Below, one piece after another: positions 21,786-38,904 of a DNA stretch of 64,000 nucleotides (positions within the stretch are counted from its first letter, which is position 1; each line of letters opens with the position of its first letter). Source of the DNA: Faecalibacterium taiwanense (GTDB lineage: Bacteria; Bacillota; Clostridia; Oscillospirales; Ruminococcaceae). The stretch lies in the NCBI RefSeq assembly GCF_036632915.2, contig NZ_CP155552.1, positions 620,001-684,000 on the forward strand, read 5' to 3'. The notes under the pieces are model-generated. The model made no database searches. It was not told the origin of the DNA and saw nothing but the letters and a program-made list of their open reading frames with translations. The position numbers were made by a program, and so were the translations under genes.

Positions 21786-22410
21786 TCCAAACCGGTGTTT
21801 TTCCTGTAACAATGCGGGGATTCTGTTTCTGGCAGGGTGCAGGGGGTTACTGCCAGAAGCGCGTATATTCGATAGAATGCAACAAATTTCCATATAATGT
21901 GCAATAAGCGGCCGAAAGACAGAACGCTTGATGAAGGACGGATTTTCAACACAGATCCACATTCGTCAAAATGATATTGGGCAATTTGGCAAAAGCGGAC
22001 AGGATGCAGTTCAAAAAATTGTCATATTTCCGACTTGTATTCTACAAATTGTACGCAGGAAATCAAAAAAGGTCGAACCAAAAAGTGGAAAACCTTGTGG
22101 AAAGTGTGGAATTCCACAGGCAAAACAGGCTTTAAAGCTGGACTTTTGAACTTTCTCCACAGGGTTTTCAACATGTGGAAAAATAATCGCTCTTCTACGG
22201 ATTGTATACCGCGTTTTTGTGGAAAACTTTTTTCTCCGGCAAAACAGAGGGATATCTACCCAGCAGCCGGGTAAAGCTGATGCAGGGCGGCAGAACATTT
22301 CTGCAAAAAAGCGGAAACGGTCTCCGGCACCACGAACAGAAAAACTTTTGCAGGACGCGGATAAAAAAGCCGTTTGTCAAGAGTAAATGCACAAAAAAGC
22401 AAAAATAATT
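21786..22410. other. AT-rich non-coding stretch with DnaA-box-like cluster
   Basis: About 625 bases with no convincing gene on either strand. Between 22084 and 22225 there are at least six copies of TGTGGA or TCCACA in the contexts CTTGTGGAAAG, AGTGTGGAATT, ATTCCACAGG, TCTCCACAGG, CATGTGGAAAA and TTTGTGGAAAAC. These resemble the TTTTCCACA variant of the DnaA box. The AT-rich DNA ends at about 22400, where the GC-rich prophage begins. Confidence 0.6.
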
Positions 22411-23457: not shown

Positions 23458-23484
23458 TGTGTTCCCCTCCGTGATAAAAGAAAA

Positions 23485-23512
23485 AGGGCGGCCCGCCGGC
23501 CGCCCCTTCTGT
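23485..23512 (-). terminator. Terminator between XRE gene and transposase
   Basis: On the minus strand GGGCGGCC-GGC-GGGCCGCCC is followed by TTTTTCTTTT. It lies between the small XRE gene and the transposase and would keep transposase expression low. Confidence 0.85.
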
Positions 23513-23515
23513 GTG

Positions 23516-23779
23516 TCAGTGTTCCTCGTACTTTTTCAGGAGCTCGAGCGTCTCCTCGTCCGTGATGATGTCGGCCAGCCTGCACTCCAGCGCGTTGCAG
23601 ATCTTCAGCAGCGTCGGCAGCTTCGCGCCGTTGATGTCCCGGGCGCCTCGCTCGTACTGCTGGAGCACTTGCACGTTGATCCCGGCCAGTGCGGCGAGCT
23701 GAGACTGAGACAGGCCGGCCGCCTTGCGGAGCTTTTGCAGCCCCTCGTTTTTATAGGTCACTTTGATCGAGATGTCCAT
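23516..23779 (-). CDS. XRE family regulator
   Basis: 87 aa, one helix-turn-helix of the Cro/C1 type (LQKLRKAAGLSQSQLAALAGINVQVLQQYERGARD, given here in its parts about residues 14-48) and a short helical tail. Sits in the same transcript as the 37-aa gene, under the consensus promoter with the 24-base palindrome at 24051-24074. A candidate lysogeny regulator or Cro. Confidence 0.85.
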   Translation of the reverse strand: MDISIKVTYKNEGLQKLRKAAGLSQSQLAALAGINVQVLQQYERGARDINGAKLPTLLKICNALECRLADIITDEETLELLKKYEEH

Positions 23780-23831
23780 GTTGTTCCTCCCGCTTGACTT
23801 CGCCGTGGTTTCGTGGTTATAATAAAGAGGA

Positions 23832-23857
23832 ACGGCGGGCGGGATTTTTCCCGCCGT
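23832..23857 (-). terminator. Hairpin after the 37-aa gene
   Basis: ACGGCGGG and CCCGCCGT-type arms around an AT loop, 10 bases after the small gene. Only a weak T tract follows (CCTCTTTATT), so it may attenuate and not end transcription. Confidence 0.45.
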
Positions 23858-23866
23858 CCTTCGACC

Positions 23867-23980
23867 TTACTGCTTGGGCTTTTGGTTCGGCTTTATCGTG
23901 ATAGTGATGGTGGCAACCTGTTCACACTTTAGAGCCTGTTCCAGCAGCTCGAGCAGTTTTTTCATCTGCTCAGCATCCAC
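23867..23980 (-). CDS. Small phage protein (37 aa)
   Basis: Starts with GTG after AAAGGAGGCAAAGCC. The helical head MKKLLELLEQALKCEQ is followed by a threonine/isoleucine strand and a Lys/Pro-rich end. Not recognised; first gene after the palindrome promoter. Confidence 0.6.
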   Translation of the reverse strand: MDAEQMKKLLELLEQALKCEQVATITITIKPNQKPKQ

Positions 23981-24050
23981 GGCTTTGCCTCCTTTCCGCG
24001 GTTTTGTTCTCCTTTCTTTCTGTACTCGGCTATCCCTTGCCTGTGATTAT

Positions 24051-24079
24051 ATTATAGAGCATTTGCTCTATAATGTCAA
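24051..24079 (-). promoter_or_regulatory. Consensus promoter with a 24-base palindromic operator
   Basis: On the minus strand TTGACA (24074-24079), 17-base spacer, TATAAT (24051-24056): a perfect sigma-70-type promoter. The same bases form a perfect inverted repeat, arms ATTATAGAGCA and TGCTCTATAAT separated by TT (24051-24074), which fills the spacer and the -10 box. A dimeric repressor, probably one of the two XRE proteins, should bind here and shut off the 37-aa, XRE and transposase genes. Confidence 0.85.
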
Positions 24080-24123
24080 GCATAATTCGGCAGATTTTCA
24101 ACATTTTCCCGCGTTTTTTCACA

Positions 24124-24160
24124 TAAAAAAAGCCGCACGGCGTCGCTGCCGTGCGGTTTT
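24124..24160. terminator. Bidirectional terminator
   Basis: CCGCACGGC (24133-24141) pairs with GCCGTGCGG (24148-24156). T runs flank both sides in the proper sense (minus strand: CTTTTTTT; plus strand: TTTTC). It separates the second XRE gene from the palindrome promoter. Confidence 0.88.
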
Positions 24161-24161
24161 C

Positions 24162-24401
24162 TCATTCTTTCCCGAGCAGGTGGTTGATCGTGGTGCCGAG
24201 AGCGGTCGCCAGATAGTCCAGCTCGTAGTCAGCAACGACTCTGCTGCCGTTCTCGATGCGGCTGATGACCTTCTGCGTGACGTCCAGTCCGATGATCTGG
24301 AGCTTGTAGGCGAGCTGTTCCTGTGATAGACCAGCCCGCAGCCGTTCCTCTTTGACTCGCTCCCCGGAGATGTTGCACCTGCCGTCTGGTTTGTAGATTT
24401 T
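24162..24401 (-). CDS. XRE family regulator (start codon unclear)
   Basis: About 79 codons ending in TGA at 24162-24164. The helix-turn-helix is clear: GLSQEQLAYKLQ, then VTQKVISRIENGSR, followed by LDYLATALGTTINHLLGK. The N-terminal part KIYKPDGRCNISGERVKEER resembles other small phage XRE proteins. AAAGGAGG lies at 24413-24420, but no ATG, GTG or TTG is at the right distance in this frame; either a rare start is used or one base is wrong. Its promoter region also serves the TM2 gene on the other strand. Confidence 0.7.
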   Translation of the reverse strand, partial: KIYKPDGRCNISGERVKEERLRAGLSQEQLAYKLQIIGLDVTQKVISRIENGSRVVADYELDYLATALGTTINHLLGKE

Positions 24402-24426
24402 CGACGCCCTCGCCTCCTTTTATCCT

Positions 24427-24491
24427 AAAGATGACTATGCAATATTGACTTTACCAGTTCTGGCATGGTAATATTATGCCAAAGATGACTA
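24427..24491. promoter_or_regulatory. Divergent control region of XRE and TM2 genes
   Basis: Plus-strand promoter TTGACT (24445-24450), 18-base spacer, TAATAT (24469-24474), for the TM2 gene. Two direct copies of AAAGATGACTA (24427-24437 and 24481-24491) flank it, and TGGCAT-ATGCCA (24461-24481) forms an inverted repeat across the -10 box. Likely operators of the divergent XRE regulator. Confidence 0.6.
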
Positions 24492-24523
24492 AACGCTAAA
24501 AAACGCAAACAGGAGGTAACGGC

Positions 24524-25027
24524 ATGGGTACACGGTTCAGACGTAGTTTCAAAATTGCCCCGGGTGTCCGGGTAAACCTTAACAAGAAAAGCGCGAGCGT
24601 CAGCTTCGGCCCGAAGGGCCTGAAGCACACGATTAGCACGACGGGAAAAAGCCACACGACCGTCGGGATCCCCGGGACGGGCTTGTCTTATACGACGAGC
24701 TCCGGCGGGAAGTCCGGCGCGCAGCAGGGCGCGGTCAGCATCCCCGCAGCGCAGCGGCCGACGTCGCCGAAAAGCAAGACGGTGGCGCTGCTGCTGTGCA
24801 TCTTCCTCGGCTTCTTCGGTGTCCATCGGTTCTATGTTGGGAAAACCGGCACAGGCGTCATTTGGCTGCTGACGGCCGGGGCCTGCGGGATCGGCTGGTT
24901 GGTCGATATTTTCACCATCCTGCTCGGCGGTTTCTATGACTCCGAGGGCCGTGTGCTGCGGTTCCAGCCCACAGAGGCCGAGCTCGCCGCTGCCGGTGAA
25001 GCGCCGGATCCTGACGCCGAGGAGTAA
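24524..25027 (+). CDS. DUF4236 and TM2 domain membrane protein
   Basis: 167 aa, the only clear phage-block gene on the plus strand. Residues 1-55 match the DUF4236 pattern ([37 protein letters not shown]). Residues about 85-140 are a TM2 domain: [23 protein letters not shown] and the second helix [13 protein letters not shown]. Expressed away from the late genes and next to a repressor, so it is probably active in the lysogen (a cargo gene altering the host membrane). Function is not known for either domain. Confidence 0.85.
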
Positions 25028-25047
25028 AGCCCCACATAACAGAAAAA

Positions 25048-25075
25048 GCCCGCCCGGGATCTCCGGGCGGGTTTC
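25048..25075. terminator. Terminator between TM2 gene and amidase
   Basis: GCCCGCCCGG and CCGGGCGGG pair around GATCT, with A-rich and TTTC flanks. Serves the converging TM2 and lysis genes. Confidence 0.8.
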
Positions 25076-25092
25076 TGCTTTTCTATGCGGTT

Positions 25093-26097
25093 TTAGAGTT
25101 TCGTGACGTAGTCCAGAGAGATCCAGCCCGCGCCGCTCTTGAGCTTGCCCCACTTGGTCGCGCCGGGGCCTGCGGCTTCGGCGACGATGGTGTAGATGCC
25201 CTTGCCCTTGATCTGGCCGGCGACGCCGTAGTTGGTGCCGGGGCCCTTGCGGATGTTCAGCACGTCGGCCGTCGTCCGCACGCGGTAGCTCGTTGCTGTG
25301 CCGGTGCTGCCGATCGAGATGTCCGCAGCGTTTACCCAGCCGTAAACGGTGGAGCCGCCGCCGCTGATTGCCTTCAGGTGGTACGGGTGCGCCTTGCCGG
25401 CCGCGACGGCCGTGATGGTGGCCTTGCCGGGCTTGCAGATCTTGGCGTCCTTGGCCGCCGCGCTGGTGTAGTGCTGCGTGCCCTTGAAGTCGACCACGTC
25501 GCCGACCTTCAGGCCGGTCTCGGTGCTGCCGGAGGTCTGGCCGCCGGTGCTGCCGCCTGCGTCCGTGATGCCGAGGCGCTTGTTGACCTCGGCCGCGATC
25601 TGGCCGTGGCGGTTGTAGAGGTAGTCGCCCGGGCAGCTCTTATTCGCGTAGTCCCTGTGCACGGTCATGTTGCAGCCGTTCAGGTGGTTCACGCGGTCGT
25701 TTTTGCTGGTCGACCAGACGAGGCGCTTGATGCCGTTGCGCTTGCAGATGTCGGTCACGAGATCCAGCAGCGCGGCGTATGCCTTCGCGGAGACGGGCCA
25801 GTCAGGCGCGCCGCCGTTGTTGGCGACTTCGATGGTGACGGCCCGCTGGTCGTTGGCGTTGGACGAGGTGCACCACGAGCGGTTTGCCTCGTCGACGTAC
25901 AGGGCGATCCGGCCGTCGGTGCCGATGCCGTAGTTGCTGGACGCCTGCCGCGCAGAGTTGGTGAACAGGTTGCCGCAGGTTTCGACGGAGCAGTTGCCGG
26001 CCATACAGTGGATCGTGATGGTGTCGATCTTCTTGGTGCGCTTGCCCGAGTGGTTCGGGCTGAGCTTGGTGTAGACCACCAGAGGGCTGTTACTCAT
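25093..26097 (-). CDS. Phage endolysin, N-acetylmuramoyl-L-alanine amidase
   Basis: 334 aa. Residues about 20-165 are an amidase_2 (PGRP-fold) catalytic domain: first zinc His in DTITIHCMAG, later His and Cys ligands in MTVHRDYANKSCPGDYL. After a Gly/Ser/Thr linker (about 175-195) come an SH3-like module (GDVVDFKGTQHY) and a C-terminal SH3_3 module (VLNIRKGPGTNYGVAGQI) for wall binding. No signal peptide, so release needs a holin. Overlaps the preceding 34-aa gene (ATGAGTAA). Confidence 0.93.
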   Translation of the reverse strand: MSNSPLVVYTKLSPNHSGKRTKKIDTITIHCMAGNCSVETCGNLFTNSARQASSNYGIGTDGRIALYVDEANRSWCTSSNANDQRAVTIEVANNGGAPDWPVSAKAYAALLDLVTDICKRNGIKRLVWSTSKNDRVNHLNGCNMTVHRDYANKSCPGDYLYNRHGQIAAEVNKRLGITDAGGSTGGQTSGSTETGLKVGDVVDFKGTQHYTSAAAKDAKICKPGKATITAVAAGKAHPYHLKAISGGGSTVYGWVNAADISIGSTGTATSYRVRTTADVLNIRKGPGTNYGVAGQIKGKGIYTIVAEAAGPGATKWGKLKSGAGWISLDYVTKL

Positions 26098-26194
26098 TGT
26101 CGTCTCCTTTCCCGCCGGTCAGCTCGTCGAGAGTCTCGTCTGTGATGGTCTCGCCGGGCTTCAGCTTGATGTCGTCGGTGTTCTGGTTTTTCAT
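26090..26194 (-). CDS. Small acidic phage protein (34 aa)
   Basis: Starts at an ATG with GGAGGTAAACCC upstream, rich in Asp/Glu/Thr (LKPGETITDETLDELTGG). Its stop overlaps the amidase start. Conserved-looking small gene of lysis cassettes in Clostridia phages; no function known to me. Confidence 0.65.
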   Translation of the reverse strand: MKNQNTDDIKLKPGETITDETLDELTGGKGDDNE

Positions 26195-26218
26195 GGGTTT
26201 ACCTCCTTTACAAGCAAG

Positions 26219-26244
26219 AAAAGGGCGGGCCGGAGCCCGCCCTC
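26219..26244 (-). terminator. Terminator after the LLH holin gene
   Basis: Minus-strand stem AGGGCGGGC-TCCG-GCCCGCCCT followed by TTTCTTG. Confidence 0.8.
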
Positions 26245-26248
26245 TCCG

Positions 26249-26563
26249 TTATTCGATGGTCAGGCCCTCAGTGTTGAGCTGCTTGACGATTGCCTCGATC
26301 GCGTTGACGACGCTTTTCTCGTCGACCTTGAAGCCCTTCTGCTTCAGGAAGTCGAGGACGTACTGCTTCTTCTCCTCGCCGCGGCCCTGTCCGACGTAGA
26401 GCTGCTCAGCGGCAGCGACGCCGATCTTTACCCACGCGGTCAGCTCCTTGCGCTGTGCCTCGGTGGTCTGCTTCTTCAGCCACGGGATCAGGAAAACGCT
26501 GACGCCGGCGCCGATCAGGGCGAGGGCTGCGTTGACGATGGGGGTGATGTCGATGGTGTTCAT
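26249..26563 (-). CDS. Phage holin, LLH family
   Basis: 104 aa. One N-terminal membrane helix (IVNAALALIGAGVSVFLIPWL) followed by a charged helix and the family pattern WVKIGVAAAEQLY, KKQYVLDFLKQKGF. Members form the hole that lets the endolysin reach the wall. Shares four bases (ATGA) with the previous gene. Confidence 0.85.
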   Translation of the reverse strand: MNTIDITPIVNAALALIGAGVSVFLIPWLKKQTTEAQRKELTAWVKIGVAAAEQLYVGQGRGEEKKQYVLDFLKQKGFKVDEKSVVNAIEAIVKQLNTEGLTIE

Positions 26564-26867
26564 CCTTTTGCCTCCTCATTGTTGAGAGTGTCCCCGGACG
26601 GATCCGGGAGCGGGTTGCCGTCGGCGTCGAGCCCGTGGCGGTTTCGGCTGATTTTCTCGCCGAGGCTCTTGCCGGCGTATGTGATTAGATAGCCGACGCA
26701 GGCGGTGAAGATGGTGCCGGTCAGCTCACCGACCGGGTCGCGCCCGAAGGCAGAGAGCAGCAGAGAGCTGGCTGCGCTGAGCGTTGCCACGCTGGCCGCC
26801 CAGTATGCGAGCTTTTTGCTCGCCTCGATTTTCTTTTACGCTTGCGCCGGCGCTTCTTTGCGGCCAT
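26560..26867 (-). CDS. Second holin-like membrane protein (frameshifted as sequenced)
   Basis: Starts MAAKKRRRKRKRK and, after one added A in the AAAA runs at 26829-26837 (T on the plus strand), continues as IEASKKLAYWAASVATLSAASSLL with two membrane helices (about residues 22-42 and 50-68) and an Asp/Pro-rich tail. 102 aa when corrected. Next to the LLH holin; a holin or antiholin role is an inference. Confidence 0.65.
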
Positions 26868-26881
26868 GCTGCTCCACCTCC

Positions 26882-27247
26882 TCAGTCGATGATCGCGTGG
26901 ATCCCCTGACTGGTGAGGAAGTCCTTCTGCGCGTGTTTGATTTTGGCAGCGTAGTCGAGGGCTGCGTGCATATCCCCGTTACAATGTGCGTCAGGGATGC
27001 GCTGCACGGCCCGGGCCGTCGCCTCGCCGAGGGCGATGGCTGCCGACGTGCCCTGAATGGTGATGATCTGGAGATCTTCACGGGCACGTTCTCGGGCCGC
27101 TGCCTCTTTCTGTCGTTTGGCCTCCTCGGCCTCCTTTTGCTTCTCGCGCTTCTGGATCCTGTGCTCGAGCATCCAGAAGCAGAAGCCGGTCGCGGCCGTC
27201 GGGATCCCCATAAGGACGACGAGCGCGCCGATGTTGATTTCGATCAT
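26882..27247 (-). CDS. Membrane-anchored coiled-coil phage protein
   Basis: 121 aa. Residues 6-27 form one membrane helix, then a strongly charged coiled coil (KREKQKEAEEAKRQKEAAAR) and a mixed C-terminus. GAGGTGACACC precedes the ATG. In the lysis cassette between holin-like genes and small late genes; could be a lysis accessory. Not recognised. Confidence 0.7.
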   Translation of the reverse strand: MIEINIGALVVLMGIPTAATGFCFWMLEHRIQKREKQKEAEEAKRQKEAAARERAREDLQIITIQGTSAAIALGEATARAVQRIPDAHCNGDMHAALDYAAKIKHAQKDFLTSQGIHAIID

Positions 27248-27266
27248 GGTGTCACCTCATAAAGTC

Positions 27267-27291
27267 GGAGGGCCGCAGCTCGCGGCCCTCC
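27267..27291 (-). terminator. Hairpin terminator in the lysis cassette
   Basis: GGAGGGCCGC-GAGCT-GCGGCCCTCC, a 10-base stem. The T tract after it is weak. Confidence 0.65.
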
Positions 27292-27303
27292 TTGTTGTTT
27301 GGC

Positions 27304-27435
27304 TTACTCCTCGACGTCGTCGAAGTAGCCCATGTCGACGAGATACTTGTGCACGCGGGCCTTCAGCTTCGCGGGGACGTTGTCCTCGGTGATGCGGCCC
27401 ATGATGATCTCGCCTGCATACAGACGTACCAGCAT
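27304..27435 (-). CDS. Small phage protein, CD1375-like (43 aa)
   Basis: I choose the ATG at 27435 because GAAAGGAGGAGCG lies just before it; an ATG 60 bases upstream lacks a site. The pattern MLVRLYAGEIIMGRI, P-AKLKARVHKYL, MG resembles the small CD1375 family found after tail fibre genes of Clostridia phages. Function unknown. Confidence 0.7.
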   Translation of the reverse strand: MLVRLYAGEIIMGRITEDNVPAKLKARVHKYLVDMGYFDDVEE

Positions 27436-27491
27436 TTCACGCTCCTCCTTTCCTGCAATTTTTAATAATAGCCACGCGAGGGCCCGGGCGA

Positions 27492-27656
27492 TCATTCGGT
27501 CGCCCTTTCCTTCGCGGTGCCAGCGTTTGCGGCTGCCTCGATGGCAGCGATGGCGTCCTCGACCTGCTTGCGCAGTTTCTTCGGGACGTCGTTGATGGTC
27601 ATGGTGGAGCCTTCGCGTGTCAGCTCCCTGACGTACAGCTCGACGATCTTGCTCAT
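27492..27656 (-). CDS. Small phage protein (54 aa)
   Basis: ATG preceded by GGGAGGTAACAGC. MSKIVELYVRELTREG followed by NDVPKKLRKQVEDAI repeats the layout of its neighbour at 27304 (mobile first strand, then 'P-KL-K-V' helix), so the two are probably diverged copies. Confidence 0.65.
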   Translation of the reverse strand: MSKIVELYVRELTREGSTMTINDVPKKLRKQVEDAIAAIEAAANAGTAKERATE

Positions 27657-27660
27657 GCTG

Positions 27661-27822
27661 TTACCTCCCTCCGTCGCCGTAGACCACGTCGGCCAGCTCC
27701 ATGATGCAGCCCTTCAGCAGCTCGATGGTGTCAGCCTGCTCGGCGATGGTTTTGTCCTTCTTGGCCTCTGCGGCCTGTTCGTCGTTCAGCTTTTGGATGC
27801 TGTCGGCTCTGTGTTTAATCAT
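27661..27822 (-). CDS. Small coiled-coil phage protein (53 aa)
   Basis: Starts with ATG (GGAGGTAACTTTGC upstream), sharing ATGA with the end of the DGR target gene. Helical throughout (SIQKLNDEQAAEAKKDKTI...). Not recognised; possible chaperone or oligomer linker for the fibre, by position only. Confidence 0.6.
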   Translation of the reverse strand: MIKHRADSIQKLNDEQAAEAKKDKTIAEQADTIELLKGCIMELADVVYGDGGR

Positions 27823-29526
27823 GCAAAGTTACCTCCGATCGACTGGATGTAGCAGGTCTCCGTAGCGGATCCGCGGAGCAGCTTGGCCTTGACCTTGACG
27901 CCCCACGCTGCGGCCGTCTTGGTCTGGTTGGTGAAATAGTGCTTCTGGCCGGTGCGGGCCTTCTGTGTGATGTCCTCCCACGTCGGGCTCGCGTCGTTGC
28001 CGTTGTTGCAGATCCAGACCTGAAGCGTGCAGCCGGCCGGGAAATTGCCCTGAATGTTGACGAGGGCCTTGGTCGGCATGGCGTCGGCCTCCATAGCGAG
28101 GGTCTGCTCAAACTCGACGGACGTGACGGCCTTGGTGAAGGTCAGCGTGCGGGTGACGCTGGCGTCCTTGGCGTCGGTCGCCACGATCTTCAGGGTGTGG
28201 CTGCCGTTCACGACCTTCAGCCACGCCTCGGAGCCGATCGTCAGCGTGTTGGTCTGGCCGAGGGTCACGGTGTAGCTGCGCAGCGTGACGCCGTCCAGCA
28301 TCTCCACGACGTCGACCTGATGTCCGTCGGCGTCGGTGACGGTGTACTCGTAGGACGGGGCCGCCGTGCTGAAGCTGCCGAGGGCGCCGTCCGTGCCGCT
28401 GATGACGGGCGGTCGGTTATTGGTGACGGTGCGGGTGGCGCTGGTGGTGTACGCACTCTCCGCGCCGGCGGCGTCGTATGCCTTGACGCGGTACTGCACG
28501 CTCGTCCATCCGTAGGTGATGGCGTCGGTGTAGCTGCGCGAGGATCCCTTGTAGATCTGTGCCCATGTGCCGCTCCCGACCTTGCGCTCCAGAACGTAGC
28601 CGGAGAGGTTGCCGTCGGGGTCGGTGGAGGCCGCCCACGAGATGCTCAGGTTCTCGCCGCCGAGCACTTCGCTCGGGACAGTGATGGACGACGGCGCTGT
28701 GGGCGCCTGATTGTAGATCACTGTATAGCATCCATCCGAGTCGACGGAGTCGGAGATCAGGAGATCAGAGGACAGATTACAAGCGGGGCGCAGGCCGTAG
28801 TGGCCGTAGCAGGCGAGGTTCCAGCTCAGAGCGCCACCGGCGCTGACGTAGCGGGCGTCGAGGGCCGAGCCGGCATAGGCGTCCCGCAGCCAGTAGTACC
28901 ACGCGGCACCAGAGCCCGGGTTGCTGGAATAGTTGGAATTGGCGACGCAGGAGGCCGTCACGGTGGCGATGCGGCTGTTGTTGTCGCTAAAGATCGCCAG
29001 CTTGCTGCCGCAGACGTGGTCGCCGCTCAGGCCGACCTCAGTGCAGGACAGGGGAAGATCTTGTCCGTGCAGGTCTCCGTCCCGCCGCCGTCTGTGGAGC
29101 TCTTGCCGACCGTGATGGTGGTGTTCAGCAGAGCTGCCCGCTCGTTGGCGGTGAAGGCGTTCAGAAAACCGGCGAGGCCACTGTACGGGTTGACGCCGTT
29201 CCAGACGTGGGAGGAGTCCGGCGTCTGGTCTGCGGAGTGCTGTGCGGTGTACCACTGGCCGGCAGCCGCGGGGCTGTTGAGCCACTGGCGCAGGTTCGAG
29301 TAGATGTAGCGGTTGTTGCCGTAGCCGCGGCGGTCGCTGTTGCCGTTACTCGGTTCTGTTGCGTCGAAGCACAGCATCTTGATGATCTGGTTGGTCACGA
29401 GCGTGACGCTGTTGGAGGGTAGCCTGCGTGGTTCTTATCGGCCACGATCCAGACGATCGGGCTGCCGTACAGGCTGCCGAACTTGACCTTCGACTTGTTT
29501 GCGAGGTTGCTCAGTTTTTGGGCCAT
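27819..29526 (-). CDS. DGR target: DUF6273/lectin-like and fibronectin-like phage surface protein (two frameshifts as sequenced)
   Basis: 569 aa when two breaks are mended (one base each at GGG 29417-29419 and GGGG 29051-29054 of the plus strand). Residues 1-255 form a DUF6273 domain, related to the lectin-like folds used by DGRs: VKFGSLYGSPIVW, LRQWLNS, GFLNAFTANERAALL, SCTEVGL, WLRDAY and GLRPACNLS. The variable repeat encodes about residues 218-249. A fibronectin type III-like module (VPSEVLGGENLSISWAAS...) and two further beta-rich modules follow. ATG at 29526 has GGAGACACAACTC upstream. Lies after the fibres and just before lysis, so it is likely a displayed adhesin on the virion. Confidence 0.88.
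28781..28875 (-). repeat. DGR variable repeat (VR)
   Basis: 95 bases aligned without gaps to the template repeat at 30853-30947. 79 are identical, 16 differ, and all 16 are adenines in the coding-sense template: 7 became G, 6 became T, 3 became C. The 3' end in coding sense (18 bases, ACGGCCTGCGCCCCGCTT) is invariant and GC-rich, as expected of the initiation-of-mutagenic-homology site. Identity stops sharply at both ends. Confidence 0.97.
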
Positions 29527-30658
29527 GAGTTGTGTCTCCTTTCGGTGATGGTTTGAGCTCCGGGAAATAGCTGAAGAAATAGGCGTCCATGTTCTGCCGC
29601 AGGTGGTAGGTGTTGCCGTGTGAGATGTGGCCCGTCCAGCTCGCGTAGGATTGCACGACGCTGTCGAGTGTCATCTTGCCAGAGTCCACCAGTCCGCGGA
29701 ACTTGCGGATCTTGCGCTTCATGTTGTCGATGCTCTTGGCTCGCACTTTCCTCACGACCTTGCCGGTCTGCGTGAGGTAGGTGTGAAAACCGAGGAAGTC
29801 GATGCCGTTCTTCAGCGGGAGGATCTGCGTCTTGCCGTTCAGCCGAAGGCCGAGCGGCTTGATGTATGCCTCGATCTCCTTGAGTATCTGCCGGAGCAGC
29901 AGCTTGTCGCTGTGTATGATGTAGAAGTCGTCCATGTACCTGCCATATACGAGGCCGCGGTCATCCCTCAGCCAGTGGTCGAAGGCGTCCAGATAGAGCA
30001 GCGCGAGCAGTTGGCTCGACTGGTTGCCGATCGGGATGCCGGGGTCTGGCGTGCTGTCGATTATGAGCCACAGCAGCCACTCAGCGAAGTCGATCAGCTC
30101 GGGATCCTTCAGCCACTTCAGGGCCCGGCGGGCCGTTTCGTAACAGTAGGAATGGAGCAGGGTGTAAAAGAACTTTGAAAAATCGCCCTTCAGTACCCAG
30201 CCGTCGGCGTAGTCCCACTCGTTCATCGGCCGGGGCGGCAGGCCGGCAGCCTTGCGGGCTGCTTCGTCTGCTGCCTTTCGGCTGAAGAAATAGTGGCGCA
30301 TAGCCGCAGCCAGACGGTCGAGGCCGTCGTGGGTGCCTTTGCCGATCTGGCCGGCGTAGTTGTCCCGGATGAAGCGCCGGGAGAACGCCGGCTCGAGGAC
30401 GTTGTCACAGAGCGAGTGCTGGACGACTTTGCCCTCGAAGTCGATGGCGAGGACGAGCCGCTCCTTGGGCTCGTACACCTTGAAGGGGTAGTAGGGCCCG
30501 AAGGAATAGTCGCGCCGCTGGAGCCTCTCAGAGAGGGCGACGGTGCGCTCGATGGCCTCCATGCGGTAGCGCATGGCGGTCGGGTTGTCGCGCTTTCCGC
30601 AGCGGGTTTTGCGGTATGCTTTGTAGAGCGCGATGGTGCTGTTTACGATATTCTCCAT
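29435..30658 (-). CDS. DGR reverse transcriptase
   Basis: 407 aa. Copies the template RNA into mutated cDNA. RT fingers/palm motifs in order: RLVLAIDFEGKVVQH, LKGDFSKFF (first Asp, about 159), PIGNQSSQLLA (about 209-219; the IGNQxSQ form marks DGR enzymes where other RTs have QG-xSP), the catalytic YMDD (241-244), LNGKTQILPL and IDFLGFHTY. No maturase or endonuclease domain follows. I choose ATG at 30658 because of GGGGAGACTTTTCA before it. The last 92 bases overlap the target gene start in another frame, with the target's ribosome binding site inside. Confidence 0.96.
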   Translation of the reverse strand: MENIVNSTIALYKAYRKTRCGKRDNPTAMRYRMEAIERTVALSERLQRRDYSFGPYYPFKVYEPKERLVLAIDFEGKVVQHSLCDNVLEPAFSRRFIRDNYAGQIGKGTHDGLDRLAAAMRHYFFSRKAADEAARKAAGLPPRPMNEWDYADGWVLKGDFSKFFYTLLHSYCYETARRALKWLKDPELIDFAEWLLWLIIDSTPDPGIPIGNQSSQLLALLYLDAFDHWLRDDRGLVYGRYMDDFYIIHSDKLLLRQILKEIEAYIKPLGLRLNGKTQILPLKNGIDFLGFHTYLTQTGKVVRKVRAKSIDNMKRKIRKFRGLVDSGKMTLDSVVQSYASWTGHISHGNTYHLRQNMDAYFFSYFPELKPSPKGDTTHGPKTEQPRKQVEGQVRQPVRQPDRLDRGR

Positions 30659-30852
30659 TGAAAAGTCTCCCCGCCGTGTATAGCTCCGGCCACGCTTTGC
30701 GTGCGCCGCCGGGGGCATCGGCGGTCTTGTGTTTACCCATGACCGGGCCGGTCAGACGGCCGCGGCTGCGGGAGGGATATGCCTTCCTTGGATGATGGGG
30801 CACAGTGTTCGCCGTCCGTCTCCGGGCGGTTAATAAGTCGGGCGATCCATCG

Positions 30853-30947
30853 AAGCGGGGCGCAGGCCGTTGTTGCCGTTGTAGGCGTTGTTCCTGTTCA
30901 GAGTGCCATCGGTGTTGACGTTGCGGGCGTTGTTGGCCGAGCCGGCA
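30853..30947 (-). repeat. DGR template repeat (TR)
   Basis: 95 bases between avd and the RT gene, same strand. In coding sense it is rich in AAC codons (ANNARNVNTDGTLNRNN if read in the VR frame), the typical adenine-dense template. It has 25 adenines, of which 16 are altered in the VR. It is not in any gene, as expected of a non-coding template RNA; the 195 bases from it to the RT start carry several GC-rich stems. Confidence 0.97.
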
Positions 30948-30978
30948 CGAAAAAACAAGGCATACCCCGAGGGCCGCC

Positions 30979-31377
30979 TCACTGGTGACGCTTCTGTGCG
31001 TCCAGCTTGGCGGCCCTCTCTTTATCCGTTTTGTACCATTTGGCGGTCTGGTTCTTCACGCCGGCCGCCATCTTCGCCCAGTATGCAAAGGCGTCATCGC
31101 CGAAGCCGCTGAGGATCTCATGCGCGAGCTCGATGTGGTGGATCAGCTTTCGGCAGTTGCGAAGCGCCGACCGCTGCGCGCGATACCTGAGCTCACGCTC
31201 CTCGGGATCCGTCAGGAGCAGATCGTTGGCCTCCATCAGATCTGCGACGAGGTCGCTGGCCTCGTTCATCATCCTCTGTGCCAGACCGAGCCGCTCCTTC
31301 TTCGGGAAAACGGCCGGGTTTCTGGTCTTGATGTAGGTGTGTTTCTCGAGCTCCTTGGCGTCCGTGATGACCTGCAT
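30979..31377 (-). CDS. avd: DGR accessory variability protein Avd
   Basis: 132 aa, basic, all-helical (four-helix-bundle pattern: RLGLAQRMMNEASDLVADLMEAN, RYRAQRSALRNCRKLIHHIE, HEILSGFGDDAFAYWAKMAAG), like the pentameric Avd that binds the RT and template RNA. Position directly before TR and RT is canonical. The listed ATG is the first in frame, but a conserved-looking stretch (RPYERANVGRPPFGRDKLPE) precedes it in the same frame back to a TGA at about 31470, with no start codon, so the true N-terminus may be longer. Confidence 0.88.
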   Translation of the reverse strand: MQVITDAKELEKHTYIKTRNPAVFPKKERLGLAQRMMNEASDLVADLMEANDLLLTDPEERELRYRAQRSALRNCRKLIHHIELAHEILSGFGDDAFAYWAKMAAGVKNQTAKWYKTDKERAAKLDAQKRHQ

Positions 31378-31390
31378 CTCGGGCAGTTTG

Positions 31391-31648
31391 TCACGGCCGA
31401 AGGGCGGGCGGCCTACATTGGCCCGCTCGTATGGCCGCGAGTGTCCGTTGCTTGCCGTAGTATCTCACCTCCTCGCCTTTGATTGTGACGCGGGCGCTGC
31501 TGCCGTCGTAGGTCTTGCCCTGAATGACGATGACGCCGTCCTCCCGCTTGCAGCAGGAGCAGGGCAGGGCCAGCTCGACGAACAGGTGCGCGATGATGCA
31601 GGAGGCTTCGGCTGGTGGGATCGGGGTGTAGTTGTAGCAGTTTCCCAT
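31391..31648 (-). CDS. Cysteine-containing small phage protein (85 aa)
   Basis: Shares ATGA with the fibre-like gene before it. Has five cysteines near the N-terminus (MGNCYNY, EASC, LPCSCCKR) and a beta-like middle. The C-terminal 15 residues overlap the upstream frame of avd. Not recognised; a role in the DGR or fibre assembly is possible only by position. Confidence 0.55.
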   Translation of the reverse strand: MGNCYNYTPIPPAEASCIIAHLFVELALPCSCCKREDGVIVIQGKTYDGSSARVTIKGEEVRYYGKQRTLAAIRAGQCRPPALRP

Positions 31649-31866
31649 CAGCACTCGAGCCTCCGCTGCCCTGTGTTCCAGATGCCGGATCTCACGGTCA
31701 GCCCCTCCAGATCGTCGAATGTGATCTGGAAGGGGTTGCTCGTGATGTCCGTGCAAACGAAGTCCCACAGGGCGTCGACCTTCACCTTCAGAGCGTTGTC
31801 AGCCGCGTCGACATACTCCTTCGTCGTGATGTCCTTCGGGTCGTCGACTGCTCCGTAGTGTTTCAT
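31648..31866 (-). CDS. Short tail-fibre-like protein (72 aa)
   Basis: MKHYGAVDDPKDITTKEYVD, a common lead-in of phage fibre chains, then a coiled segment and the C-terminal module TSNPFQITFDDL...GIWN-G-RRLEC. That module is also the end of the collar-fibre protein at 33898-34647. Rather a short trimerising piece than a full fibre. Confidence 0.65.
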   Translation of the reverse strand: MKHYGAVDDPKDITTKEYVDAADNALKVKVDALWDFVCTDITSNPFQITFDDLEGLTVRSGIWNTGQRRLEC

Positions 31867-31878
31867 AGGCCGGCCTCC

Positions 31879-33105
31879 TTACAGTGCGATGCTTGTGATG
31901 ATGACGAGGATCGGGTTGGAGGGCGCGGCCGCGAGCGTGACCGTGACTTTGCCGTTGGCCGAGGCCGTAGCGTTATCGAAAGAGATGTCGCCGATGACCT
32001 GCTCCTTGGTGGCGCTGTCGATCAGGATCACGCTGAGGATGTAGCCGGTGACGGCGAAGCTCTTGCTCGCCGCGTCGCTGAGGGTCTGGACGGTCTTGGT
32101 GACGGCCTTCGGGATCGCGGGCTTGTTCTTGATGAAGGCGTCACTATTGCCGTCCGTCTCGTTCCAGTCGCTCTGGACGTTCTTCTCGGCGTCGGCGGGA
32201 GCGTGGGCGCTCTGGCTGTGGTCGTATGCCGTCTTGCCGCGGTCGCCGCGGTAGGCGGTGCTCGCAGTCTCGCCGATGGCGAGGTCGTTGCCGATGACGG
32301 CGTAGGTCGTCCCGCTCCAGCGGTACGTCTTGTTCTGGTACTCGCCTTTGCTCAGGATGACGTAGATCTTGTCGGACTCAGGTGTCAGGGCGGCGCCGCC
32401 GGAGGTCTTACTCAGCCAGTCGGCACCGAGGGCCGTGGCGCCGGTGCGGATGTAGGCGTCGACGACGTCGTCCACATAGCTCGGGAGCTGGTTGGCCGGC
32501 ACCTTGCCGCCGCTGTCCAGCTCGGCCACGCCGCCGGCTGCGCCCTTTTCCGTTGCGGGGATCGCGCCGACGTCAGCGGCAGCGGACGGGATCGTCGGCT
32601 TGTCGCTCAGATCCTTATAGCTGCCGGAGAAGGCCACGGTCTTGAGGTCGCTGAAGAACTTCAGCACCTTGCCGAGCAGGACGCTCAGCTTCTCGCCAGA
32701 GGTGGGCGCCTCACGCTTGGCCGATGCCTCGAAGGCGACGGTCGCGTTGGAGCCGTCGCCGTCCGTGTTCAGCTTGCTGGTGTCCTTGGGGTGGACGTGG
32801 TCGCCGCGTGCGAACGCCATCTCAGTGCCGACGGCGGCGGTGCCGTTCATCTTCGGCGTAGTCGTGGACGCTGCTGCGCCCTCGGGGATGTCGCCGGAGG
32901 TGATAAAGCCGCTGTCGTTCTCGAGCTGCGAGGTCTTGGTCGGCACAGGGATCCATTTCTCACCTGTCCACAGGTACAGCGTCAGGTCGATGCTGTTGAA
33001 ATAGATCTGGCCGATCTTCGGGTTGGCCGGAGGTGCAGCGAGCGGCTGCATGATGGCGTTTTGGATCTCGTTCTGTGAGAGATCAATGCTTGTCAGGAAT
33101 TTCAC
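31879..33105 (-). CDS. Tail fibre protein
   Basis: 408 aa, GTG start with GGAGGTAAACCC. Begins MKFLTSIDLSQNEIQNAIMQPL and KIGQIYFNSIDLTLYLWTGEKW (fibre-tip/adaptor motif), then low-complexity linkers with DHVHPKDTS (the metal-binding HxH of fibre shafts), DLSDKPTIP and FIKNKPAIP repeats, and a beta-rich end. Distal receptor-binding candidate beside the DGR target. Confidence 0.8.
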   Translation of the reverse strand: MKFLTSIDLSQNEIQNAIMQPLAAPPANPKIGQIYFNSIDLTLYLWTGEKWIPVPTKTSQLENDSGFITSGDIPEGAAASTTTPKMNGTAAVGTEMAFARGDHVHPKDTSKLNTDGDGSNATVAFEASAKREAPTSGEKLSVLLGKVLKFFSDLKTVAFSGSYKDLSDKPTIPSAAADVGAIPATEKGAAGGVAELDSGGKVPANQLPSYVDDVVDAYIRTGATALGADWLSKTSGGAALTPESDKIYVILSKGEYQNKTYRWSGTTYAVIGNDLAIGETASTAYRGDRGKTAYDHSQSAHAPADAEKNVQSDWNETDGNSDAFIKNKPAIPKAVTKTVQTLSDAASKSFAVTGYILSVILIDSATKEQVIGDISFDNATASANGKVTVTLAAAPSNPILVIITSIAL

Positions 33106-33117
33106 GGGTTTACCTCC

Positions 33118-33519
33118 TTAGTTGAAGTATGCAGTCCCGGAAAAGGCTGCGCAGAAGGTCAGGCGCACGGTGTTGTCGTCGAGGTAGTCGACCTCCCCGA
33201 TGACCACAGTGCCGGCGCTGTCGACGACCGTGACGGCGGGCCGCTTTCCGAGGTTGTGGGCGACTGTCCACACCTTCGCTGCCTGCGCCTGCTTGTGGGT
33301 GTGGTGCCTGTCGTCCGTGATGCCGAGCTGCGCCGGCGTCATGTCGCCGATCAGCTCGTGCCCGTTGATCTTGGGCTTGTTGCGCAGGGCTTCGTAGTTT
33401 GAGGCGCTGCCGCCGCCCGTCTCCTTCATGGAGGCGGTCATGGAGGCAGGCGTCTCGGTCATCTTCGCCCCGAAGGTCTCTGCGCTGCCAGAGAACGAGG
33501 CATTGAAGTCGACGCTCAC
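33118..33519 (-). CDS. Tail fibre accessory protein (133 aa)
   Basis: GTG start touching the previous stop. Contains ALRNKPKINGHELIGDMTPAQLG, a phage fibre joint motif, and a C-terminal beta domain (WTVAHNLGKRPAVTVVD). Between the upstream 114-aa protein and the fibre. Confidence 0.7.
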   Translation of the reverse strand: MSVDFNASFSGSAETFGAKMTETPASMTASMKETGGGSASNYEALRNKPKINGHELIGDMTPAQLGITDDRHHTHKQAQAAKVWTVAHNLGKRPAVTVVDSAGTVVIGEVDYLDDNTVRLTFCAAFSGTAYFN

Positions 33520-33864
33520 TTAGATGACGCCGTCCTTCAGGATCCGGCTGAGCGGGGCGGTCATAATGTTGCTCGCAAACGCGCGCCCGTCCTCCGTCCT
33601 GCCGCGGATCTGCACCTCCACCTGTTGATCCTCGTCTGGAGACAGAGAGCCGAGCAGCAGCGTGTCGGCTTGCGTCAGGCTGACGGTGACGACCTTGTCG
33701 GTCGCGTCGACGCCCTCGTCCCCGAGGTGCTTGGTGACTTCCACCTGCTTCGGCGGGGCATAGGTGGCGAGCTGCTGCGTGCGGAATGTTACCCACATGG
33801 TCACGAACTCGCTGACGTCGATGTCACAGTTGATGGTGATGGTTGGTGTGGTGCCTCTATACAT
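33520..33864 (-). CDS. Phage baseplate/fibre-associated protein (114 aa)
   Basis: Beta-rich, MYRGTTPTITINCDID... the opening 'RGTTPT' is frequent in small upper-fibre proteins of Clostridia phages. No known function. GGAGGCCGCCC upstream. Confidence 0.65.
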   Translation of the reverse strand: MYRGTTPTITINCDIDVSEFVTMWVTFRTQQLATYAPPKQVEVTKHLGDEGVDATDKVVTVSLTQADTLLLGSLSPDEDQQVEVQIRGRTEDGRAFASNIMTAPLSRILKDGVI

Positions 33865-33897
33865 GGGCGGCCTCCTTTCTGGCCTTTGGCCGGTAGT

Positions 33898-34647
33898 TTA
33901 GCACTCGAGGCGCTGGAGTCCGCTGTTCCAGATGCCGGCCGTCAGGGTGATGCCCGTCAGGTCTGCAAACGTGATCTGGAAGGGGTTGGTCGTGATCTCG
34001 CTGAAAACGGCGTCCCACAGTGTTGCGATCTTGCTGGTGTTCTGGCCGACCGCGTTGCTCAGGTCATTCACCGACGCCTCGGCGGCCTGTGCGATTGCGA
34101 TGGCCTGCCGGGCGAGCGCCAGAGCCTCCTCTGCCGTAGCCTGCGCGCCGAGGGCGATGGCTTTGTAGGTCTCGTAGTCCTCTTTGGTGGCGTAGGCGTC
34201 GGCGGGGATGTAGGCGGTCACGTTGGTGGCCGTGCCGATCGCGGTGACGATGTCGATGGTTTTCTCGACGATGGTGGCGCCGCCGGATGGCGGGATCCAC
34301 TCGGCCAGATCGCCGCAGTTGCCGTAGCAGTACAGCACCTCGCCGACCTCGGGATCGGGATCTTCGGCATAAAGGCCGAGCTCGCGGTAGTAGAAGCCCT
34401 CGGTCTCGTCGCCGTTGGTGAAGATGCCGCCGACGGCCACGGTGCCGTCACCGTTGATCTTCAGCTTCGTGATGTCGACGGTCGCCTTCGGGCTGACCAC
34501 GCCGGTGAGGGTGCGGGGCGTCTGGCCCTCCTCGAGGTAGCCATCGCCGAGGACGATCTTGGTGTAGTTGATCTTCTGGCCGGCCACGCCCTTCGCCAGA
34601 ACGATCAGGCCGGCGGTGGTGATGTCGTTGTTGATAAATGCAGCCAT
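33898..34647 (-). CDS. Tail collar fibre protein
   Basis: 249 aa. N-terminal P2 gpH/DUF3751-type collar domain (MAAFINNDITTAGLIVLAKGVAG, ITKIVLGDG, YYRELGLYAEDP), then an Ala-rich coiled coil (about residues 165-210) and the C-terminal module NPFQITFADL...GIWNSGLQRLEC shared with the gene at 31648. Attaches the fibres to the baseplate after gene I. Confidence 0.85.
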   Translation of the reverse strand: MAAFINNDITTAGLIVLAKGVAGQKINYTKIVLGDGYLEEGQTPRTLTGVVSPKATVDITKLKINGDGTVAVGGIFTNGDETEGFYYRELGLYAEDPDPEVGEVLYCYGNCGDLAEWIPPSGGATIVEKTIDIVTAIGTATNVTAYIPADAYATKEDYETYKAIALGAQATAEEALALARQAIAIAQAAEASVNDLSNAVGQNTSKIATLWDAVFSEITTNPFQITFADLTGITLTAGIWNSGLQRLEC

Positions 34648-34662
34648 GTCTATCTCCTTTCC

Positions 34663-35312
34663 TTAGTCTGAGATGACCGCCGCGTCGGTGCCGATGCTGA
34701 CGGTCTCGCGGTTGTTGTCGTGGACGACGGCCGCGTGGTAGATGTGGATCTCGTCGCTGCCCATGACGTGCACCTCTTGGGTGTGATCCCTGACGGCCAT
34801 GCCGGAATAGAGGAACATTTCGCCGGTCAGGCAGATCAGGATCGCGTCGAGCCACGAGCTGCGGCGCTTGACCGTCCGCAGCAGCTTCAGGAACAGGTCG
34901 AGGTTGCTGTTGACGAGGCTCGGGTTGTCGCTCAGCACCTTGAAGTGATGCGGCTGCCCGCCGTACTGATACCACTCCCTGACCTCGCCGGTGCCGAAGT
35001 AGTCGGCCACGATCTGCTCCACGGCGTAGGGGTGCCGAGTTTCGCGTAGACGCGGTCGCTGTTGCGGATGACGGCCTGCTTGGCTGCGATGGGCGCGGTG
35101 CTGTCATACCACTGGATGTTCAGCTCCCACGCCATTTCGTCGAGCTCTGCGTCGCTGAGCTGGTCGATCTTGTCCCACCTGCTCAGGAGCTTCAGGCGTG
35201 CATAGGCGTCGCGGCTGATAATGTCGCAGCCGGTGGCGATGCCCTTGTCGCTGCCGTCCTCCTGCATCCACGCAGGCAGCAGTTTGACCATCTCGGTCTC
35301 ATTGAGCCGCAT
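34663..35312 (-). CDS. Tail protein I, baseplate (frameshifted as sequenced)
   Basis: P2 gpI-like. 216 aa after adding one C to the run at 35029-35032 (GGGG on the plus strand): the first frame runs MRLNETEMVKLLPAWMQEDG to VYAKLGTP, the second YAVEQIVADYFG to AAVISD. RDAYARLKLLSRWDKIDQL and ELNIQWYD are gpI hallmarks. Located directly after gene J. Confidence 0.85.
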
Positions 35313-36721
35313 TTACACCACCTCGCTCTCGACCTTGTGGCTGACAGTCAGGTGGCCGCTGAATTTGGCGACTTGCGTGTCGTCGAGGGCCTTGTAGGTC
35401 GGCTTGACGACGTCCACGCGGAAGGCGCCGGTCAGGTTCTCGCCCCACGAAGGCGAGAGGATCCGCTTGCGGAGCTGGTCGGGGTTGATGTCCCGGCCGA
35501 GGGCTGCGACTTGCCACTCGTTGTAGCGGTCGATCGCGCCGCCGGTGCCTTCGACGTTGGCGATCACCTCGGCCTCGCTCTCCGGCGTGGTGTAGTACAC
35601 GATCTCGATGTCGTAGGTCTCGACCTCCGGGGCACGGCGCTCACCTTGTCAGTGAGCGGCCGGATGTCCTTGGCGTTGACCACGTCCAGCACCTTCGCCA
35701 GCATGGCAGCGTCGGGGATCCCGCCGCCTTCCAGCAGGGGCACGATCTTGACGCAGCCCTCCAGCGTGCGGGTGATGATGATGTCGATGCTCTCGGCGGC
35801 CGAGAGGCTGCCCTTGAGCGTGATGGTCAGCAGGTCGTCGGTGTAGTCGACGGTGTAGTCCGTGTCCTTGGCCGCCGCCGTGCTCTGCCCGTGGGCCTTC
35901 ACGACGAGGCTGTCGGCCAGAAGTGTGCCGCCGCCCTTGAAGGCTTTGCCGTCGCAGACCGTGAGGGTCTCGCTGACGGTTTCCTTCTCGCTGACAGCCT
36001 TTGCGTCCACGATGGAGCTGTCGGCCGTCATTACCCAGTAGATGTAAGCCTGTTCAGGGCCCGCGGTGGATCTCTTGGCGGGTGCCAGACGGATCCGCTC
36101 GCGGAGGCGGTTGTCGCCCTCGGTAGTGTAGGGCTCGCCGTCATCGCCTCCGGCCGTTTCGGTCAGATTGGTGACGGACTCGATGTAGGGGATCAGGTCG
36201 ACGAGGGTGGCGATCGTGCCGGCTGCGTAGCCGTTGAACTTCGTGCCGTTGCTCACGGCCGAGGTAGGCACCTCCACAGAGTAGGCGCCAGCTTGCAGCA
36301 CAGCGATCTCGTCGGTCGCAAAATAGTTTTCGCTGTCCGGCGTCACCTTCGTCCACTTCGGAATGATGATGTTTCTCTCCTGCGGCGTGGAGACAGAGAA
36401 GCGCATGGTCGTCTTGGCCGGTGTGCCTTCCAGTCGTTTCACGTCCTGCCGCTCGCCGATGGCGTCCAGCACCTCGCCCCTCGCATAGCGGAGGAGCGTC
36501 TGCCGGCCGACGTCGTTGAGGCTGTTGTAGAGGGCAACGAACACGGGCACGAGAGCCTCGCCGAAGATCCGGCGCTCGTCGCCCGGGTAGAGCGGCTCGC
36601 CGGCGCCCTTTTCGAGCTCGGTGATGATGGTCTTGTATAGGGTGCTCGCGTCTGTCGTGGTGAGTTTGATGTCCTCGCCGTAGGTGTTTGTCGCGTCGCT
36701 CACGCTGTTCACCTCCTTCAT
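35313..36721 (-). CDS. Baseplate protein J (frameshifted as sequenced)
   Basis: P2 gpJ-like (Mu gp47/PBSX XkdT family), 469 aa after one base is added at 35629-35632. Motifs: LYPGDERRIFGEALV, YARGEVLDAIGERQDVKR (the family signature), AGTIATLVDLIPYI, TTEGDNRLRERI. Makes the outer wedge of the contractile baseplate. Starts within four bases of the gp25-like gene's stop. Confidence 0.88.
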
Positions 36722-36990
36722 GTGATGTTGTCGATGCTGGCCCGCAGCTCGAAGTCGCCGGCCTGAGCGGTCAGAGCCTTCAGGTCGGAGTCACTGAGCT
36801 GCACGCGGGGCTCGTAGGTTTCCACGAGGAACTCCACGTCGGCGGCCAGATCGGTCGCAGCAGTTTCGCTCGGCTTGTCGATCAGCGTGCGGTCGATCCC
36901 TTTGATGCGCTCATAGGGCACCTCCCCGCGGATGGTCTTGAGGAGGTTCTGCACACAGATCTCGGGCGCTCCGTTGCCGGATGCTTTCAT
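36718..36990 (-). CDS. Baseplate wedge protein, gpW/gp25-like
   Basis: 90 aa, lysozyme-like baseplate wedge family: LLKTIRGEVPYERIKGID, a conserved pattern, and VEFLVETYEPRVQL. The gene order V-W-J-I fits. Confidence 0.8.
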   Translation of the reverse strand: MKASGNGAPEICVQNLLKTIRGEVPYERIKGIDRTLIDKPSETAATDLAADVEFLVETYEPRVQLSDSDLKALTAQAGDFELRASIDNIT

Positions 36991-37004
36991 GGGATCACCT
37001 CGCT

Positions 37005-37558: not shown

Positions 37559-37570
37559 GTCTATCCCTCC

Positions 37571-38900: not shown

Positions 38901-38904
38901 GGCG

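What the first reader, a model, noticed from the sequence alone, without database searches (positions are those of the whole stretch)
27819..31377. Complete diversity-generating retroelement in a Faecalibacterium prophage
Seen in the sequence: a 95-bp template (30853-30947) and a 95-bp variable repeat (28781-28875) on the same strand align without gaps. They differ at 16 positions; all 16 are A in the coding-sense template (25 A in total), and none of the 70 other bases differ. Sixteen of sixteen at A cannot be chance decay. An RT with IGNQSSQ and YMDD and an Avd-like gene complete the cassette in the order avd-TR-RT-target. Fourteen codons of the target are altered, mostly former AAC: to Leu, Asp, Tyr, Ser, His. 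Known: DGRs use A-specific mutagenic retrohoming, and I recall reports of DGRs in F. prausnitzii prophages, so the class is known; this particular target and layout may not be.
Basis: partly seen in the sequence, partly recalled or inferred. Interest (0 to 1): 0.95.

Follow-up and report, generated by a model that had tools for sequence, protein, structure and literature searches.

The report
Two-target gene diversifier in gut phage

Summary
In detail: a 95-bp template repeat (TR, 30853-30947) and variable repeat (VR1, 28781-28875) differ at 16 sites, all A in the template. RT and Avd are confirmed. The element lies in a 47.2-kb prophage of a Faecalibacterium chromosome. It is not new: its TR is identical over 121 bp to that of phage nd4, whose two-target DGR was published in 2023 (PMC10743442). 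Two things were missed. The tail-side target gene carries two frameshifts in this assembly, probably sequencing errors; intact copies exist in relatives. And a second variable repeat lies 36 kb away, beyond the window, in a 234-aa lectin-fold (DUF6273) gene of the replication/recombination module. Between near-identical prophages both repeats vary almost only at template adenines, so the DGR has been active in this lineage. In 12 of 16 RT-bearing viral contigs examined, and in phages Toutatis, Lelie, nd12 and Brigit, a DUF6273 gene of this second type shares the tail-side target's template. A 2025 Nature paper noted four such prophages; an intracellular role is my inference.

The parts
30979..31377 (-). 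avd, accessory variability determinant (132 aa)
   Evidence: phrog_3206 'Avd protein of DGR', E 3e-26, residues 1-131
30853..30947 (-). template repeat (TR), 95 bp, 25 A in the coding sense
   Evidence: identical over 121 bp with flanks in phage nd4 and Oscillibacter sp. ER4
29435..30718 (-). DGR reverse transcriptase (427-aa frame; nd4 annotates 407 aa), IGNQSSQ and YMDD; its 3' end overlaps the target 1 start by 92 nt
   Evidence: phrog_1423 E 1e-115, RVT_1 E 1.2e-10
27819..29526 (-). target 1: DUF6273 (lectin-type) domain followed by Ig/Fn3-like domains ('tentaclin', 569 aa in intact relatives); frame interrupted by two single-base frameshifts in this assembly
   Evidence: DUF6273 on both pieces; frameshifts absent in 10 of 10 relatives; intact 568-574-aa frames in 9 of 10 relatives listed (the tenth, L064, extends upstream to 751 aa)
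28781..28875 (-). variable repeat 1 (VR1), in the middle of target 1, at the end of its DUF6273 domain
   Evidence: 16 differences from TR, all at template A
22367..64000 (.). part of the prophage inside the window; it runs on to genome C1:689564 (47.2 kb in all). The second target (genome C1:686603-687307, minus, 234 aa) and VR2 (C1:686809-686887) lie in the part beyond the window
   Evidence: synteny with nd4; flanks adjoin in the same-species genome G042; VR2; gene
22354..22368 (.). attachment-site repeat on the left (15 bp, repeated at the right end, L095:6565-6579)

Best explanation
This is a two-target diversity-generating retroelement of an nd4-like Faecalibacterium prophage, in which the reverse transcriptase with Avd would copy the template repeat, misreading its adenines, into two variable repeats: one in a lectin-Ig protein encoded beside the tail genes, and one 36 kb away in a small lectin-fold protein encoded in the replication and recombination module, which likely acts inside the cell. 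Shown by sequence: TR, RT, Avd, both VRs, adenine-limited variation at both VRs among near-identical prophages, the prophage ends, and the position of the second target. Inferred from the established DGR mechanism (mutagenic retrohoming as worked out in Bordetella phage BPP-1, recalled): the reverse transcription, the adenine misreading and the cDNA homing. Inferred and untested: target 1 is a virion protein that binds host or mucus; target 2 is made early and binds a varying partner in the cell. The two frameshifts in target 1 are most likely assembly errors, not an inactivation.
Against: No expression, cDNA or read-level data: current activity in this strain is not shown. Against ER4 contig C98 the indel excess is weaker (67 deletions, 46 insertions, 19 of 67 in runs of 4-6), so real inactivation of target 1 is not excluded. 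Target 2 beside early genes does not prove an intracellular role; one of 10 lineages (L184) has a tail-fibre-like gene two genes away, another (L170) has a lytic-transglycosylase-like neighbour with weak tail and virion matches, and a third (L191) is undetermined. In 4 of 16 RT-bearing contigs no VR with 0-1 non-A differences was found in the DUF6273 gene.
Confidence: 0.92

Rival explanations
1. Both targets are host- or mucus-binding virion proteins; target 2 works like Mtd of phage BPP-1 although its gene lies among early genes. This is the reading that PMC10743442 favours for target 2.
For: Target 2 has the C-type lectin fold that known DGR receptor-binding proteins use, and DGR phages use diversified lectin domains for attachment (PMC8144416 section 9).
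Against: In the window, nd4, Toutatis, nd12 and Brigit it is encoded among replication, recombination, nucleotide or regulator genes, and in 8 of 10 further lineages a nearest supported neighbour is a replication, recombination or helicase-loader gene. In nd12 it is fused to a nucleotide-kinase-like/DUF3310 part. No membrane-like segment by hydropathy (highest 19-residue mean 0.58).
Confidence: 0.35
2. The DGR of this particular genome is a relic: target 1 is truly frameshifted and the element no longer matters here.
For: Two frameshifts in target 1 that none of 10 relatives has.
Against: Excess of single-base deletions in same-base runs across the whole prophage when compared with nd4, as sequencing error would give; RT, avd, TR and target 2 are intact; VR1 and VR2 carry no or one non-A change.
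Confidence: 0.15
3. TR and the VRs are ordinary diverged repeats (old duplications or recombination), not DGR products.
For: None found beyond the fact that repeats can arise by duplication.
Against: Adenine-only differences at two independent copies and in three near-identical prophages, with RT and Avd beside the template.
Confidence: 0.01

Closest known systems
DGR of phage nd4 (OR777945; PMC10743442, 2023)
   Same: TR identical over 121 bp; same RT-target overlap layout, tentaclin as target 1, 234-aa DUF6273 protein as target 2 with the VR at its 3' part; about 98% identity over the aligned prophage (863 substitutions in 43,850 aligned bases). By the usual 95% identity rule the same phage species.
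   Different: nd4 is a metagenomic record; here the phage is integrated in a Faecalibacterium chromosome with defined ends. VR1 and VR2 differ at template-A sites. The window carries a 2.1-kb tail-fibre stretch (31771-33899) that nd4 lacks.
Two-VR DGRs of Faecalibacterium prophages Lelie, CP11 and Lagaffe_CP (PMC11792537, 2024)
   Same: Faecalibacterium prophages with two VRs served by one TR; large and small DUF6273 targets in Lelie and CP11; Lelie re-checked here.
   Different: Lelie is only distantly related (target 2 32% identical). CP11 may be this same phage, but its sequence was not at hand.
Prophages with a second, distal VR near counter-defence genes (PMC12629997, Nature 2025)
   Same: Four gut prophage species with a second VR far from the RT, near genes such as DNA methyltransferase: the same pattern as here.
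   Different: That paper (passages seen) does not name the target family; here it is phrog_9958/DUF6273, with replication and recombination neighbours in most lineages.
DGR of Bordetella phage BPP-1 (avd, TR, RT, mtd; recalled)
   Same: Same components and adenine-specific logic.
   Different: One target; target with VR at its 3' end and upstream of the RT; here VR1 is mid-gene, target 1 lies downstream of and overlaps the RT, and there is a second target.

Membership tests
Diversity-generating retroelement (DGR) | Template and variable repeat that differ at template adenines only | tested here: met
   16 of 16 differences at A for VR1, 15 of 16 for VR2
Diversity-generating retroelement (DGR) | Reverse transcriptase of the DGR type with intact catalytic motif | tested here: met
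   IGNQSSQ and YMDD; phrog_1423. YxDD found in 86 of 86 relatives (lax scan of three frames); xGxxxSQ-type motif before it in 62 of 86 with a simple pattern, other letters in 17, none found in 7
Diversity-generating retroelement (DGR) | Accessory protein Avd | tested here: met
   phrog_3206, 3e-26; no Pfam or NCBIfam hit
Diversity-generating retroelement (DGR) | Variable residues on a lectin-type fold of the target | tested here: met
   Target 2 model, C-type lectin matches. Target 1: DUF6273 by Pfam, but the lectin part of my model of the ER4 protein has pLDDT under 50
Diversity-generating retroelement (DGR) | Homing signal (IMH) downstream of the VR that differs from that of the TR | tested here: inconclusive
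   Downstream flanks of VR1 and VR2 resemble each other and not that of TR, but this may reflect shared protein sequence
Diversity-generating retroelement (DGR) | RT-dependent mutagenic retrohoming | not testable with these tools
   Only indirect: population variation at both VRs
nd4-like two-target DGR (PMC10743442) | TR identical to nd4, target 1 tentaclin, target 2 small DUF6273 protein with VR | tested here: met
   in this assembly the target 1 frame is interrupted
Mtd-like receptor-binding tail protein (for target 2) | Encoded with the tail genes | tested here: not met
   Encoded between a DnaQ-type exonuclease and other early genes
Mtd-like receptor-binding tail protein (for target 2) | Present in the virion | not testable with these tools
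   Needs virion proteomics

The most novel reading that the evidence does not exclude
These gut phages run one DGR for two battles: the same template diversifies a surface-binding virion protein and an early, intracellular lectin-fold protein that lies in the replication/recombination module, so that hypermutation tunes not only attachment but also a takeover or counter-defence step inside the cell. The arrangement recurs in at least five phage groups with named members or close relatives and in most of ten further lineages, and surveys that look only next to the RT miss it.
Probability: 0.45. Interest if true: 0.75.

Novelty: already known. Interest (0 to 1): 0.35.

Why it matters
The element itself adds a host (a Faecalibacterium chromosome, with exact integration site) for a phage so far known mainly from metagenomes. 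The wider point is the second target. PMC8144416 states that its survey of more than 30,000 DGRs would not detect remote targets, so early-module targets are likely under-counted. If target 2 works inside the cell, DGRs would diversify phage takeover or counter-defence proteins, and the long-open question of what the paired targets do becomes testable in cultured phages such as Lelie.

Tried and rejected
Rejected: chance decay of repeats. Rejected: the first frame as the whole target gene. Rejected: Oscillibacter as the host of the window, suggested at first by the 100% identical RT in Oscillibacter sp. ER4, because kinship points to Faecalibacterium.

Led nowhere: Pfam and NCBIfam for Avd and NCBIfam for target 2; the avd-RT gap of Brigit as TR (the TR was then found slightly upstream, inside the annotated avd frame); a model of target 1 whose lectin part stayed unreliable; tRNA scan for the integration site, 0 tRNAs in the window and flanks; searches for papers on early-gene, intracellular or non-structural phage DGR targets found no direct account in their listings, but a passage of PMC12629997 does describe distal second VRs near DNA methyltransferases.

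Of 107 neighbour frames 90 went into A3; the frames of L219 and L170 and two of L207 were left out. Frames were called by a simple longest-first rule, so some are spurious. Of 163 PHROG families only 25 were shown. The ten lineages were grouped by eye.
Full report
What was checked. The 95-bp repeat pair is real and gap-free. Read on the minus strand, TR (30853-30947) and VR1 (28781-28875) differ at 16 positions, all A in TR: 16 of 25 A, 0 of 70 other bases. RT and Avd are confirmed by PHROG families. The layout on the minus strand is avd-TR-RT-target, and the RT frame overlaps the target start (29526) by 92 nt.

Where it lies. The window is 620001-684000 of a one-contig, 2.96-Mb genome. A genome that the tool calls the same species (G042) coincides in position with Faecalibacterium sp. 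I4-3-84, NZ_CP094466. In G042 the sequences left and right of the element adjoin with a 13-bp overlap, and a 15-bp direct repeat marks the two ends. The prophage is thus 47.2 kb, from window 22367 to genome 689564. It carries baseplate, tail-fibre and amidase genes beside the DGR.

A target broken in this assembly. Target 1 is a DUF6273 domain followed by Ig/Fn3-like domains. In the window its frame is interrupted by two single-base frameshifts that none of 10 relatives has; of 10 relatives listed, nine have open frames of 568-574 aa and one (L064) a longer frame of 751 aa. Against nd4 the prophage shows 39 single-base deletions and 10 single-base insertions; 26 of the 39 lie in same-base runs of 4-6, while runs of 4 or more hold 3.5% of the bases. 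This looks like sequencing error. Against ER4 contig C98 the excess is weaker (67 and 46; 19 of 67 in runs of 4-6) and against ER4 contig C89 it is 19 and 3, so a real lesion is not excluded.

Natural variation. TR is identical over 121 bp in the window, phage nd4 and Oscillibacter sp. ER4. Between the window and nd4, VR1 differs at 15 of 25 template-A sites, 1 of 70 other VR sites and 22 of 1127 sites of the part of the gene compared outside the VR; against ER4 18, 0 and 19; against MT835922 17, 1 and 23. VR2 between window and nd4: 16 of 23, 2 of 56, 15 of 626; window and ER4: 17, 1, 11; nd4 and ER4: 10, 1, 8.

Closest published system. PMC10743442 (abstract, passages and the Discussion seen) describes nd4 and nd12: two targets, target 1 called a tentaclin, target 2 a 234-aa (nd4) DUF6273 protein; 54 genomes with the nd4 TR, 39 of them with two targets; one nd4-like prophage, in Flavonifractor plautii, at 85% identity. 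It suggests an Mtd-like host-binding role for target 2. PMC11792537 (abstract, three sections and passages) found two VRs in Faecalibacterium prophages Lelie, Lagaffe_CP and CP11 and leaves the function of the pairs open. The window's prophage is about 98% identical to nd4 (863 substitutions in 43,850 aligned bases). The element is therefore already known; the integrated copy and its exact site are what the window adds.

Is the second target an early protein? In Toutatis the gene (gp24) lies between a prohibitin-family gene and a regulator, upstream of replication initiation and antiterminator Q genes, with DNA methyltransferases before it; in Brigit (gp06) between early regulators and exonuclease and RecT genes; in nd12 it is fused to a nucleotide-kinase-like part and lies beside pyrophosphatase and methyltransferase genes. 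An adenine-tolerant scan showed both VRs in Toutatis (16 differences with 0 non-A; 13 with 0), Lelie (17 with 0; 16 with 1), nd12 (14 with 0; 15 with 0) and Brigit (16 with 0; 9 with 0; 20 shuffles gave at most 14 against 66). The Cornuault paper names one DGR target for Brigit, the Hoc-like protein (passages of PMC5883640). A profile search of viral contigs gave 73 loci, to which four were added for the scan. There 22 of 77 showed a VR with 0-1 non-A differences and the TR on the same locus, mostly local single-target cassettes. Of 36 longer contigs 16 have the RT, and in 12 of these the gene holds a VR for the TR beside the RT with 0-1 non-A differences; L221 gave 9 non-A, and L169, L186 and L192 gave none. 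All 12 also have a VR beside the RT.

Neighbours. Of 90 neighbour frames from ten contigs, the 25 most frequent PHROG families (of 163) include integrase, DNA methyltransferases, replication initiation, DNA invertase, regulator, RecT, RecE, DnaC-type loader and pyrophosphatase; 8 of the 25 are unnamed, at least three of them matched by a lytic-transglycosylase-like gene beside L170's target. Looking at nearest supported neighbours one by one, 8 of 10 lineages have a replication, recombination or helicase-loader gene; L184 has a regulator and then a tail-fibre-like gene, L191 is undetermined. The pattern favours an early, non-virion protein, but does not prove it. [quoted passage not shown] the family and the replication/recombination setting across more lineages are what my calls add. 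PMC8144416 says its survey would not detect remote targets (passages).

Hosts. Nearly the same prophage (about 94-97% over most pieces) sits in Oscillibacter sp. ER4, on two contigs whose other sequence showed no match of 150 bp or more to the window's flanks. Relatives of about 80-85% lie in Butyricicoccus pullicaecorum and Lachnoclostridium sp. An14. This agrees with a broad host range, which DGR phages are reported to have (PMC8144416 section 9), but an assembly contaminant in ER4 is not excluded.

Verdict. A real, recently active (by variation between genomes) two-target DGR of a published type. Ordinary as a DGR; the second, early-module target is the part worth a specialist's time.

Noticed in passing
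window 31771-33899: A stretch of about 2.1 kb with tail-fibre-like frames, just upstream of the DGR, has no counterpart in nd4, MT835922, ER4 or the B. pullicaecorum prophage.
   Followed up: partly
window 22354-22368 and L095:6565-6579: 15-bp direct repeat at the prophage ends; the site is empty in the same-species genome G042; the right end lies just upstream of an rRNA-methyltransferase-like gene (name recalled, not searched).
   Followed up: yes
L144 and L147 (Oscillibacter sp. ER4 contigs C98 and C89): Nearly identical prophage in another bacterial genus, split over two contigs, with different VR1 and VR2.
   Followed up: partly
L164:3948-4559 (Faecalibacterium phage FP_Brigit gp06): Early gene after the HTH regulators carries a remote VR for the Brigit TR (9 differences, all at A); the passages of PMC5883640 that I saw name only the Hoc-like target.
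   Followed up: partly
L099:588-1481 (phage nd12): Second target fused to a nucleotide-kinase-like N-terminal part (phrog_236 and others).
   Followed up: partly
L191:9122-9904 and 9995-10645: Two adjacent phrog_9958-type genes; only the second shows a VR for the TR.
   Followed up: partly
window 22367-64000: Excess of single-base deletions in same-base runs against nd4, which suggests residual errors in this assembly.
   Followed up: partly
L097:8724-10412 (phage nd4): About 1.7 kb, mostly one 558-aa frame (WRQ08028), lies in nd4 between the genes flanking window-plus-flank position 65907-65915 and is absent from the window's prophage.
   Followed up: no
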